From Natronomonas salina (lineage in GTDB: Archaea > Halobacteriota > Halobacteria > Halobacteriales > Haloarculaceae): a stretch of 64,000 nt of DNA. A program made the translations under genes and the position numbers. The notes under the pieces are model-generated. The model had not been told where the DNA came from and searched no databases. It saw only the letters and a program-made list of their open reading frames with translations. Positions 34,474 through 56,429 of the stretch are shown here, piece by piece (the first letter of the stretch is position 1; every line of letters begins with the position of its first letter). The DNA lies in NCBI RefSeq assembly GCF_013391105.1, contig NZ_CP058335.1, positions 1,178,001 through 1,242,000 of the forward strand. Reading direction: 5' to 3'.

Positions 34474-35310
34474 ATGAGCACACTCCAGAACGACGTCGAG
34501 GAACTGCAGCAGCGCTACGACGAGGGACTGACCGCCGACGAGGTCGGCGAGGAAGAACTGGCCGTCCTTGAGGAGTTCCTGCAGGCGCTCGAGGCCGGCG
34601 ACGTCCGGGCCGCCGAGAAGCGCGACGGCGAGTGGGAGGCCAACGAGTGGGTCAAGCAGGGCATCCTCCTGAACTTCGGCCTGCGCGACATCGAGACGCA
34701 CAGCCACGGCGGCGTCGACTACCACGACGTCCTGCCGCTGCGCGACACCTCGGACCTCCCCGAGCGCGGCACCCGGAACACCCCGGACGGCACCGTCGTC
34801 CGTCGCGGCGCCTACGTCGGCAGCGACGCCATCATGATGAGCCCGTCGTTCGTCAACATCGGCGCGTACGTCGGCGACGGCACGCTCGTCGACTCCTGCG
34901 ACACGGTCGGCTCGGCGGCCCAGATCGGCGACGACGTCAAGCTCGGCGCGAACACGCTCATCGGCGGCGTCCTCGAACCCGTCGAGGCCGCGCCGGTCGT
35001 CGTCGAGGACGGTGTCGCACTGGGCGCCGGCTGTCGCGTGACCTCCGGGTTCGTCGTCGGCGAGAACAGCGTCGTCGGCGAGAACACGCTGCTGACGCCG
35101 CGCATCCCGGTCTACGACCTCGTCGAGGAGGAGATCCTCTTCGGCCACCTGCCGCCGGAGCGGCGCGCGTTCACCCGGTTCGTGGAATCGAGCGTCGGTG
35201 ATCACGACCTCTTCGAAGGCGGCGCCTACAAGCCCGCCGTCGTCGCGACGGACGTCGAGGACGAGACGCTGGAGGCGACCCAGCGCGAGGACGCGCTGCG
35301 CGGCAATTGA
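34474..35310 (+). CDS. dapD: 2,3,4,5-tetrahydropyridine-2,6-dicarboxylate N-succinyltransferase
   Basis: 278 residues. The N-terminal helical part is followed by a left-handed beta-helix, with hexapeptide-like rungs VVRRGAYVGSDAIMMSPSFVNIGAYVGDGTLVDSCDTVGSAAQIGDDVKLGANTLIGGVL; the MSPSFVNIGAYV and DSCDTVGSAAQIG blocks are the DapD signature. It succinylates tetrahydrodipicolinate. Downstream genes of this route (dapE, dapF, and an aminotransferase) are not in the window; the next gene is a vapB antitoxin. A CGTTTTCG stretch about 20 bp upstream may be part of its own promoter. Confidence 0.93.
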   Translation: MSTLQNDVEELQQRYDEGLTADEVGEEELAVLEEFLQALEAGDVRAAEKRDGEWEANEWVKQGILLNFGLRDIETHSHGGVDYHDVLPLRDTSDLPERGTRNTPDGTVVRRGAYVGSDAIMMSPSFVNIGAYVGDGTLVDSCDTVGSAAQIGDDVKLGANTLIGGVLEPVEAAPVVVEDGVALGAGCRVTSGFVVGENSVVGENTLLTPRIPVYDLVEEEILFGHLPPERRAFTRFVESSVGDHDLFEGGAYKPAVVATDVEDETLEATQREDALRGN

Positions 35311-35335
35311 TCACGGTCCCGCCGAAACCTTATCT

Positions 35336-35353
35336 GTGTACGTACACGTACAC
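35336..35353 (+). promoter_or_regulatory. Palindromic operator of the vapB promoter
   Basis: GTGTACGTACAC (35336-35347) is a perfect palindrome, continued by GTACAC. It lies between a TATA-like ACCTTATC (35327-35334) and the vapB ATG at 35360, so a bound VapB/VapBC complex would block initiation, the usual autoregulation of TA pairs. Confidence 0.55.
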
Positions 35354-35359
35354 GGCTAT

Positions 35360-35623
35360 ATGGGGACGAAGACGATATCGCTCGCGGACGATGCCTACGA
35401 GAAACTCAAGGCCCACAAGCGCGAGGGCGAGAGCTTCAGCGACGTCGTCCGGCGTCTCACCGGCGGCGTCACGCTCTCGGAATACTACGGCGCTCTCGAC
35501 GACGAGACGGCCGACGAACTCGAGGGGATCATCGAGGAGCGCCGAGAAGGACGCTCCGAGACACACCGCGAACGGGTCGATCGGTTCGTCAACGAGTTCG
35601 ATGGGTCAGGTACCCACCTCTAA
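35360..35623 (+). CDS. vapB: VapB-type antitoxin
   Basis: 87 residues from ATG 35360 (MGTKTISLADDAYEKLKAHK). The N-terminus is the short DNA-binding part of archaeal VapB/UPF0330-like antitoxins (TISLADDAYEKLKAHKREGESFSDVVRRL), followed by an acidic helical C-terminus that normally wraps around VapC. It has lost its native end: codons from about GSGTHL onward and the TAA stop at 35621-35623 lie inside the right-end hairpin of a TnpB element. Its toxin partner vapC is 1.4 kb downstream, beyond the element. The preceding palindrome suggests autoregulation. Confidence 0.82.
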   Translation: MGTKTISLADDAYEKLKAHKREGESFSDVVRRLTGGVTLSEYYGALDDETADELEGIIEERREGRSETHRERVDRFVNEFDGSGTHL

Positions 35624-35632
35624 AGGGGTGGG
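35613..35632. repeat. Right-end hairpin of TnpB element 1, hosting two convergent stop codons
   Basis: CCCACCTC, TAAA, GGGGTGGG: an 8-bp stem with one G-T pair. The vapB stop (TAA 35621-35623) and the tnpB stop (CTA on plus, 35620-35622) both lie in it. Confidence 0.7.
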
Positions 35633-36876
35633 CTTGTCAGTGGACTCCCGCTCTGACCACCCGTGTCGGTGGCAGGCGTAAACTCGCCGTTCGCGTGCAG
35701 CGTCCCTGACTTCAGGGCCACCTGACAGTCGGCCCCTCCAGGGCCAGACGTGTGCCAGCCCTGGAGCAATCGCCACCCGATATTTCGGGCGGCATTGTAG
35801 TCGGCGTGCAGTTCCTTCCCGCATTCAAGGCACTCGAACTCATCGCCGTCACGGTTGTGCTCGTGGGTGAACCCACAGGTCGAGTGACTGCAGCGCTGAC
35901 TCGTGTAGGCGGGGGCGACTGTGGCCACCAGAATGCCGTGTTCTTCGGCCTTGTACTCGGTGTACTGCTGGATCGTCCGGAAGGCCCACTGCTGGAACTT
36001 CGAGGCACTCGAGATCCTCTCGCAGATGTTCGTTAAATCCTCGAATGCAATCGCAGCACAGTCGTGTTGACGGGCCTCCTGAACGATGGCTTTCGAGACC
36101 CGATGGAGATAGTCGTCGCTCCATCGCCCGAACCGATTACCGACGCGCTGGATGGTGAGGTGGGCCGACCGCGTCCCTGTCTGCTGGAGGCGCCCGCGTC
36201 GCCGTTCGTACTCGCGACGCTTGTGATTCAGTAAGTCGGCGTTGCCGAGGAACTGTCCTGTGCTGGTGACGGCCAGAGAGCCATCCACATTGAGGTCGAC
36301 GCCGAGAACCACTCCGTTCTCAACAGTCGACACGTCCGTCTCCGGCTCCTTCTCGATGGCAACATGGAGGTAGTACTCACCGTTCCGCTTGTGCAGCGTC
36401 GCTTCCTTGCGCTCCCACTCCTCACGGTCCCAGTACTCTTCGAACGGCGTCCCTGTCTCGTCTGCGGGCGTGACATAGTCGGCACGAACACGCCCATCGA
36501 CAGTAGCGAGTGTGCAGTGTTCGTCATTGTACGTGATGGTGCGGTGGCCGTAGACGACGACCGACCCGCGGAACGTGGGTTTACTCGTCGTGGCCCCCTC
36601 GAATAGTCGGTCCTGAGAGTTGGCAAGAGCTTCGGCAGCGAGCCGCCGCGCCGATTGGACGTGATTCGAGTGGAGGTCGGTCTGTGCGCGTACCTCATCG
36701 TAGGTTGCAGCGTTGAGGACACGTTGGTCAGTGGTGATGTCGCAAGGGTCGTCGGCCCATCCGTAATCCGCAACGTACTGAGCAGCCTCGCGAAATTGCT
36801 CGAACGTCGCATCAAGCACGCTGTGAGCGTCCGCTGGCACGTCGAGTTTCACCTGGATGTTCCGGACGACCGTCAC
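35620..36876 (-). CDS. tnpB: TnpB (RNA-guided endonuclease family, IS1341 type)
   Basis: 418 residues from GTG 36876 (MTVVRNIQVKLDVPADAHSV); the frame is open to 36954. All three RuvC acidic sites are seen: VLGVDLNVDGSLAVT (Asp), AAIAFEDLTNICE (Glu) and ADYNAARNIGWRLL (Asp), with the zinc ribbon CSHSTCGF...CLECGKE just before the last. A TATA-like CTTTAAGTAC at about 36899-36908 is 23-32 bp upstream of 36876, which supports this start. TnpB proteins use a right-end RNA to cut DNA and help retain the element. No TnpA is encoded here, so the element needs one in trans to move. Confidence 0.85.
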   Translation of the reverse strand: MTVVRNIQVKLDVPADAHSVLDATFEQFREAAQYVADYGWADDPCDITTDQRVLNAATYDEVRAQTDLHSNHVQSARRLAAEALANSQDRLFEGATTSKPTFRGSVVVYGHRTITYNDEHCTLATVDGRVRADYVTPADETGTPFEEYWDREEWERKEATLHKRNGEYYLHVAIEKEPETDVSTVENGVVLGVDLNVDGSLAVTSTGQFLGNADLLNHKRREYERRRGRLQQTGTRSAHLTIQRVGNRFGRWSDDYLHRVSKAIVQEARQHDCAAIAFEDLTNICERISSASKFQQWAFRTIQQYTEYKAEEHGILVATVAPAYTSQRCSHSTCGFTHEHNRDGDEFECLECGKELHADYNAARNIGWRLLQGWHTSGPGGADCQVALKSGTLHANGEFTPATDTGGQSGSPLTSPPL

Positions 36877-36978
36877 ACCGCCCGTTGGCTGCGTTATCGT
36901 ACTTAAAGGTTGGAACGGGACCGAGGAGTCGGTCTTGCTAGTACCGAGGAACATTGTACTGGAGCGGACACGCTTCCT

Positions 36979-36998
36979 CCCACGGCTGAAGCCGTGGG
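36979..36998. repeat. Left-end hairpin of TnpB element 1
   Basis: CCCACGGCTGAAGCCGTGGG, an 8-bp perfect stem with a short loop. Matching hairpins lie at 55269-55288 and, with an extra A, at 48233-48253. Confidence 0.7.
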
Positions 36999-37016
36999 TT
37001 TCCGCGCTGCGATTTT

Positions 37017-37406
37017 ATGATACTGGATTCGACGTTCCTCATCGACGTCCTTCGCGGTCGTGAGGAGGTCACTGACCGCGTCGAAGAGTTGGATGCCAGC
37101 GGAGCTCCAGCTGTCAGTTCGGTGACCGTGATGGAGCTCTGGGAGGGGATCCAGCTGGCCGATGCGAGCGAAAGCGAACGAAGAGCGGTCGAGAATCTCC
37201 TGACCGATATCGACGAGTTCGCCTTCGACAGGGACTGTGCGATGACCGCAGGTCGAATCAACGCTGAACTGGTCCAGGCCGGTACCCCGGTCGATACGAC
37301 CGACGTGATGATCGCGGCGACCGGGCTGGTGTACGACCGGCCGGTCGTGACGCGGAACGTCAGCGATTTCGAACGCGTTCCAGACCTCGAGGTCGTCTCC
37401 TACTGA
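37017..37406 (+). CDS. vapC: VapC-type PIN-domain ribonuclease toxin
   Basis: 129 residues beginning MILDSTFLIDVLRGREEV. The PIN domain is complete: Asp in LDSTFLID (residue 4), Glu in SVTVMELWEG, Asp in VDTTDVMIAATG (about residue 97) and the last acidic site NVSDFERV. VapC enzymes cut RNA, often tRNA or rRNA. The start ATGA at 37017 contains TGA, where a vapB stop would normally overlap, so vapB and vapC were adjacent before the TnpB element went in. It is cut off from the vapB promoter by 1.4 kb of opposite-strand DNA, so its current expression is doubtful. Confidence 0.87.
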   Translation: MILDSTFLIDVLRGREEVTDRVEELDASGAPAVSSVTVMELWEGIQLADASESERRAVENLLTDIDEFAFDRDCAMTAGRINAELVQAGTPVDTTDVMIAATGLVYDRPVVTRNVSDFERVPDLEVVSY

Positions 37407-48215: not shown

Positions 48216-48232
48216 CACGTCGCGAGCGGAAG

Positions 48233-48253
48233 CCCACAGGCTTCAGCCGTGGG
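48233..48253 (+). repeat. Solo left-end-like hairpin of the TnpB element family
   Basis: CCCACAGGCTTCAGCCGTGGG: the element left-end hairpin with one extra A in the stem, preceded by GCGGAAG and followed by AGGAGG as in element 1. No tnpB or right end is nearby, so this is a relic, a very short non-autonomous derivative, or a borrowed terminator. Confidence 0.6.
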
Positions 48254-48307
48254 AGGAGGTAAAGACCGGGCGAATCGCTATTAGGTCAGGCGCCACATCG
48301 AGGAGAC

Positions 48308-55382: not shown

Positions 55383-56429
55383 GTGGTCACGAGAGCTGTC
55401 ACCACGACGTTTCACAATCCATCCCGTGAGCGGCGCAGAGAGTGCCAACGCGCCACCCACTTGTACCGCGACACCAAGCAATTCTGCATCGACGGCTGGG
55501 AAGCCGGTGAGTTTGGCATGCGTGTGACCACGGCTAGCATCAACAACGACCTGTATTCCGCCATCCAGAATCAGGCCATCCGCGAAGCCAAAGCTGACTA
55601 CAACAAGGACGGCACCGTCAAGTACCACGCCAGCCAACCGTTCGCGATCAACAACCAGAACTGGGAGATTGATCGCACTGAGAACGGATCGGTCGTCGTC
55701 GGGTTCCCCTGTATCTCAGGGTGGTGGTACACCCCTATCGATGTGTACGATGACATCGCCGACGACGTTGCCCGTCTCGTGGACGGCGACGCTGACAAGT
55801 CCCGATTGCAGGTGTATCGCCGTGGCGAGGACTGGTATTGTACGTTCACCGTCGAATCCGACGCCGAGTTAGGCGACGGAACAGCGATCGGCGTAGATAT
55901 TGGCCACAACCATCTGCTGGCGGCAGACGCCGAGCGCGGTGAGTCGTTGCTTATGTCCGGTCGTGAGGCGAAATACGTTCGGCGCAAATATCGTTCCCTA
56001 CGCGAGTCGCTCCAAGAGGCGGGTGCGCTTCGCGCACGCAACCGCGTGGGTAACAAAGAACAGCGTCGGATCCGTGACCTCAACCACACCGCCTCCCGTC
56101 GCCTCATCGACTGGGCACAACAGTTCGAGAATCCTGTTCTAAAACTCGAGGACGTAGAGGGGATTAGAGCGGGAAGCGATTGGCGCGGCGTTCACTCGTG
56201 ACACTTCCACCAGCTTCAGGAGTTCATCACCTACAAAGCCCAACGGGCCGGGATTCGCGTCGAGGTAGTTGATCCGTTCGAGACGAGTCAGCGCTGTTCG
56301 GCATGTGGTGCCGACGGAACACGTGACGGTGACTATTTTTCGTGTTCCGAATGCGACCGTGGTCGTCATGCCGACCTGAACGCCGCCGAGAACATCCGTC
56401 AACGGGAGGGAGACCCATGCACGGCCTAA
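55383..56429 (+). pseudogene. tnpB: tnpB with an in-frame TGA
   Basis: The start is GTG 55383 ([20 protein letters not shown]), with a TATA-type GGTTTATATGC at 55344-55354, 29-39 bp upstream. RuvC sites are intact: [13 protein letters not shown] (Asp), LKLEDVEGI (Glu), and [10 protein letters not shown] (Asp), with the zinc ribbon CSACGADG...CSECDRG. At 56199-56201, after RGVHS, a TGA interrupts the frame where TnpB proteins normally have Trp (HSWxF); the frame continues [14 protein letters not shown] to 56429. A single G-to-A change TGG to TGA explains it. The truncated product would lack the zinc ribbon and last catalytic Asp, so the element is probably dead as a nuclease. Confidence 0.82.

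What the first reader, a model, noticed from the sequence alone, without database searches (positions are those of the whole stretch)
35336..37406. vapBC toxin-antitoxin pair split by a TnpB element
The antitoxin (35360-35623) and the PIN toxin (37017-37406) are on one strand with a complete TnpB element in opposite orientation exactly between them. The toxin start ATGA still holds the TGA where vapB would normally end. The toxin is now remote from the autoregulated vapB promoter, and the antitoxin has a new C-terminus. A TnpB nuclease that protects its own insertion site would, in this place, keep a toxin-antitoxin locus inactivated; alternatively both systems now act as separate addiction modules.
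Basis: partly seen in the sequence, partly recalled or inferred. Interest (0 to 1): 0.65.

Follow-up and report, generated by a model that had tools for sequence, protein, structure and literature searches.

The report
TnpB element inserted between vapB and vapC
In a salt-loving archaeon, a small mobile element carrying an RNA-guided nuclease (TnpB) landed exactly between an antitoxin gene and its toxin gene, leaving both proteins readable but cutting the toxin off from its promoter; it is a clean example of a known kind of event.

Summary
In a Natronomonas-type haloarchaeon, vapB (35360-35623) and vapC (37017-37406) are separated by exactly 1,412 bp. Nine distinct relatives carry the orthologous dapD-vapB-vapC locus uninterrupted, vapB running straight into vapC, usually with an ATGA overlap. 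The insert (35605-37016) is a complete IS1341-type (IS200/IS605, TnpB-only) element, tnpB on the minus strand, inserted without deletion or duplication next to TCAT. Relatives of this element sit next to (T)TCAT; its reverse complement is the ATGA overlap, which explains the exact position. VapB keeps all 82 residues and gains SGTHL; VapC keeps its whole frame and PIN residues but has lost its promoter. The right end has omegaRNA anatomy with a covarying pseudoknot, and the guide it would carry matches the empty vapBC site, so an active TnpB should attack intact copies. That this keeps the toxin silent is plausible but untested. No other split vapBC was found in 72 element loci, gene starts are not clearly preferred (4 of 29 against 6.5% of control sites), and no cognate TnpA was found. 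Ordinary biology, unusually clean.

The parts
35325..35359 (+). vapB promoter region: AT-rich box (CCTTATC, about -30) and palindromic GTGTACGTACAC operator-like repeat
   Evidence: Box position and palindrome are shared with 12 relatives; promoter and operator function inferred
35360..35623 (+). vapB antitoxin, 82 native residues plus SGTHL read from the element
   Evidence: PF02697; relatives end at residue 81-82
35605..37016 (-). IS1341-type (TnpB-only IS200/IS605) element, 1,412 bp
   Evidence: Ends defined by two further copies in the genome and by the empty site in relatives
35620..36876 (-). tnpB from its probable GTG start (418 aa; longest frame reaches 36954)
   Evidence: NF040570, PF07282; aligned with Cas12f and TnpB chains of known structure; start by homology
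35605..35769 (-). right end with omegaRNA scaffold; the 3' terminal CCTGAC pairs with an inner GTCAGG (pseudoknot)
   Evidence: Six of six pairs in 16 of 16 sequences with five combinations
35585..35604 (-). guide segment expected in the omegaRNA: CCATCGAACTCGTTGACGAA, the complement of the vapB 3' end
   Evidence: Position next to the right end; use as guide inferred from the TnpB family
37017..37020 (-). TCAT target motif (ATGA on the + strand: vapC start, holding the former vapB stop TGA)
   Evidence: TCAT flanks the left end in the three copies of this genome and in nearly all related elements
37017..37406 (+). vapC, PIN-domain toxin, 129 aa, intact frame
   Evidence: PF01850; nearest solved proteins are VapC endonucleases; D4, E40, D96 kept in the alignment

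Best explanation
An ancestral dapD-linked vapBC operon was interrupted by one precise insertion of a TnpB-only IS200/IS605 (IS1341-type) element. Shown: the 1,412-bp element lies next to TCAT on the minus strand, that is at the ATGA overlap of vapB and vapC, with no deletion or duplication; VapB is lengthened by five residues and VapC is whole. Inferred: vapB is still expressed from its own autoregulated promoter, while vapC, now 1.4 kb downstream behind an element read in the opposite direction, is expressed weakly or not at all. Inferred from the TnpB family: the omegaRNA from the right end carries the complement of the vapB 3' end as guide, so TnpB cuts empty vapBC copies, where TCAT precedes the guide match (sister chromosomes of a polyploid cell, incoming DNA), and repair copies the element in; the occupied site lacks TCAT there and is spared. 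Silencing of vapC would be a by-product of element maintenance.
For: Uninterrupted orthologues with dapD upstream and vapB-vapC gap 0 against 1,412; two more copies of the same length and ends in the genome; TCAT next to the left end throughout the clade; catalytic part of TnpB aligned with solved relatives; covarying pseudoknot ending exactly at the junction; no TCAT-flanked match to the guide elsewhere in the genome within 3 mismatches over 20. ISDra2 TnpB cuts next to its target motif with a right-end RNA and was proposed to restore the transposon (PMC8612924).
Against: No expression or cleavage data. No cognate TnpA in the genome: the only one lies in an element with a different TnpB. The right end matches no Rfam sotRNA family at E<=1. 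The promoter scan upstream of vapC is weak evidence, since the same scan also misses the vapB box.
Confidence: 0.8

Rival explanations
1. The pair still works as a TA system: read-through from the vapB promoter across the element, or a weak promoter inside it, makes enough VapC, and VapB with five extra residues still neutralises it.
For: VapB is complete plus five residues, VapC is intact with PIN residues kept and overall low dN against dS to relatives; a TTAAA-type box lies 115 nt upstream of vapC.
Against: No promoter-like box at the usual distance of a leaderless start: that stretch is the G+C-rich end hairpin; lineage-specific changes in VapC are 18 against 8 and 20 against 9 in the strongest comparisons (8 against 5 in the weakest) while VapB and dapD are balanced, a hint of relaxed constraint.
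Confidence: 0.25
2. The TnpB element is a dead passenger: TnpB or its omegaRNA is no longer active, and the split is a plain insertion with no ongoing protection of the site.
For: No cognate TnpA was found, copies are few and diverged (88% and 77% in DNA).
Against: TnpB frame, catalytic motifs, both ends and the pseudoknot are intact.
Confidence: 0.3
3. The element is drawn to TA loci, or the association is selected because it builds a joint addiction module.
For: The position exactly between antitoxin and toxin looks suggestive.
Against: No other split vapBC among 72 element loci; gene starts hit in 4 of 29 insertions against 6.5% of control ATGA sites; the motif TCAT alone explains the site.
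Confidence: 0.03

Closest known systems
IS1341-type (TnpB-only) IS200/IS605 elements of haloarchaea, such as those of Natronomonas pharaonis (PMC3119063)
   Same: tnpB without linked tnpA, near-terminal palindromes, no target duplication, conserved target oligonucleotide at the left end, few close copies per genome
   Different: Nothing in kind; this copy happens to lie at the vapB/vapC overlap
ISDra2 TnpB with its right-end RNA (PMC8612924)
   Same: RuvC and zinc-ribbon nuclease, right-end RNA whose 3' end is the flanking DNA, insertion 3' of a short motif used as TAM
   Different: Motif TCAT (mostly TTCAT) instead of TTGAT; no tnpA in the element; activity not tested
VapBC type II toxin-antitoxin systems, VAPB_antitox with PIN toxin
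   Same: Both partners, their order and strand, promoter box with palindromic repeat before vapB
   Different: The two genes are 1.4 kb apart and no longer overlap; VapB carries five extra residues

Membership tests
IS200/IS605 element, IS1341 type | TnpB of the RNA-guided family | tested here: met
   NF040570 179 bits, cut-off 100
IS200/IS605 element, IS1341 type | No linked TnpA | tested here: met
   Single Y1 transposase of the genome is at 1761836, with another TnpB
IS200/IS605 element, IS1341 type | Insertion next to a fixed short motif, without target duplication | tested here: met
   TCAT; gap 1,412 against 0
IS200/IS605 element, IS1341 type | Structured right-end RNA directly before the guide | tested here: met
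   Covarying pseudoknot and stems; expression not testable here
Active TnpB nuclease system | RNA-guided cleavage next to the motif | not testable with these tools
   Needs an experiment
VapBC type II TA | VapB-family antitoxin with PIN-domain toxin | tested here: met
   PF02697, PF01850
VapBC type II TA | Adjacent, overlapping genes in one operon | tested here: not met
   1,412 bp between them in the window; met in relatives. By layout this is an interrupted VapBC
VapBC type II TA | Toxicity of VapC and neutralisation by VapB | not testable with these tools
   Needs an experiment

The most novel reading that the evidence does not exclude
TnpB, guided to the vapB 3' end, acts like a small gene drive that converts intact vapBC copies in a polyploid haloarchaeal cell, and in recombining strains, to the interrupted allele, so that an RNA-guided nuclease keeps a toxin-antitoxin system switched off in a population.
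Probability: 0.15. Interest if true: 0.55.

Novelty: new member of a known kind. Interest (0 to 1): 0.3.

Why it matters
It is a natural experiment: one clean event separates a toxin from its antitoxin's promoter while leaving both proteins whole, and the inserted element carries a nuclease that should be programmed against the intact allele. It also shows a simple reason why this clade can land exactly at ATGA overlaps of operons: its target motif is TCAT.

Tried and rejected
Recurrent targeting of TA loci: no other split pair in 72 element loci. Preference for gene starts: 4 of 29 against 6.5% of 275 control ATGA sites, too few to claim. Cognate TnpA in trans: the single TnpA sits in an element with another TnpB and other end sequences. 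Known haloarchaeal sotRNA families of Rfam: no match at E<=1. Other genomic targets of the guide: five sites with 3 mismatches, none preceded by TCAT. Decay of vapC: frame and PIN residues intact, only a weak rate signal. A second split locus suspected in L221 turned out to be loss of vapB, not an insertion. No paper on a vapBC split by a TnpB element was found in the library.

Full report
Setting. The window lies at 1178001-1242000 of a single-contig 3.75-Mb genome. The nearest named relatives at this locus are Natronomonas (L042/L013, a MAG; L043/L014, N. gomsonensis).

Observation. The solved proteins nearest to VapC are tRNA(fMet)-specific VapC endonucleases.

Was the pair once joined? Yes. 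In the nearest relatives vapB runs directly into vapC, mostly as GG or GA followed by ATGATCCT, the vapB stop TGA lying inside the ATGA. dapD stands upstream in nine distinct close relatives, as in the window, so the loci are orthologous (three further loci agree but may be the same species). Of 48 loci examined, the window aside, 43 had both genes, all adjacent and on one strand (a few are the same genome fetched from two collections), and four distant ones had no vapB detected; only the window has a gap, of exactly 1,412 bp.

The element. Two more copies of 1,412 bp lie in the same genome, 88% and 77% identical in DNA. The left end begins directly after TCAT (window TATCAT, copies ATTCAT and AATCAT); the right end closes with CCTGAC. 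In the wider clade the base before TCAT is mostly T (22 of 29 in a set that was selected for TCAT); in the unselected listing one element showed TTCAG instead. A sister clade at about 60% identity uses TTGAT, the motif of ISDra2 (PMC8612924). The reverse complement of TCAT is ATGA, the vapB/vapC overlap, so the position needs no further cause.

What happened to the genes. VapB keeps its 82 native residues, the third base of its last Gly codon now coming from the element, and reads SGTHL before a stop in the right end. Its AT-rich box and GTGTACGTACAC-type palindrome are kept as in relatives. VapC keeps its frame and the acidic residues D4, E40 and D96. At the usual distance of a haloarchaeal leaderless promoter the stretch before vapC is the G+C-rich end hairpin; a simple scan finds only a CTTAAA 115 nt away, but the same scan also misses the vapB box, so it is weak evidence. 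Lineage-specific amino-acid changes in VapC are 18 against 8 and 20 against 9 in the strongest comparisons and 8 against 5 in the weakest; VapB and dapD are about balanced. The comparisons are not independent, so this is at most a hint of relaxed constraint.

The nuclease. TnpB aligns over its RuvC and zinc-ribbon parts with solved Cas12f and TnpB chains. The last ~165 nt of the right end fold into conserved stems, and a pseudoknot joins the very 3' end to an inner loop: all six pairs hold in 16 of 16 sequences through five combinations of arms. This puts the border between scaffold and guide at 35605/35604. The guide, CCATCGAACTCGTTGACGAA, is the complement of the vapB 3' end; in the empty site TCAT stands directly before it, in the occupied site it does not. 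No other place in the genome within three mismatches over 20 nt is preceded by TCAT. By analogy with ISDra2 (PMC8612924) an active TnpB would cut empty vapBC copies and have the element copied in; polyploidy and gene conversion of haloarchaea (PMC4056108, PMC11276520) would favour this. That whole step is inference.

Generality. IS1341-type elements are abundant in Natronomonas, mostly without TnpA, and insert without duplications (PMC3119063). The only TnpA of this genome belongs to a different element, so how this element moved is unknown. In 72 element loci no second vapBC was split, and gene starts were hit in 4 of 29 cases against 6.5% of control sites.

Verdict. A real, precise and well-explained insertion of a known kind of element into a known kind of TA locus. 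The regulatory consequence is likely but unmeasured. Interest is modest, raised by how clean the natural experiment is.

Noticed in passing
L221 (G242:C1:1237933-1238316), also L253: Another haloarchaeal relative of this vapC stands without vapB: only the last dozen codons of vapB seem to remain, and at the place of the vapC start codon the sequence reads ATA instead of ATG. It looks like a decayed vapBC.
   Followed up: partly
L126, L127, L128: Three genomes (two in other genera of the family, one in another family of the order) carry a related TnpB element at the same site inside what looks, from memory, like a SRAP (YedK)-type gene, with the same guide segment. Shared descent, homing or transfer were not told apart.
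   Followed up: no
L003 (G000:C1:3478944-3480354): A further copy in the same genome also sits directly before an ATGAT start of an open frame of 136 codons.
   Followed up: partly
window 34474-35623 and relatives L013-L018, L044-L046: The vapBC pair is stably linked to dapD (lysine biosynthesis) across several haloarchaeal families; a TA module kept next to a biosynthetic gene is worth a look.
   Followed up: partly
window 55794-56396 and 48226-48257: A distant TnpB relative (31% identity over 217 residues) and a solitary left-end-like hairpin of this kind of element lie elsewhere in the window.
   Followed up: no
L155, L156, L132, L135: The sister clade of this element uses TTGAT preceded by CATC (CATCTTGAT) at its left end, so the target motif switched between TTCAT and TTGAT among close TnpB relatives.
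   Followed up: no
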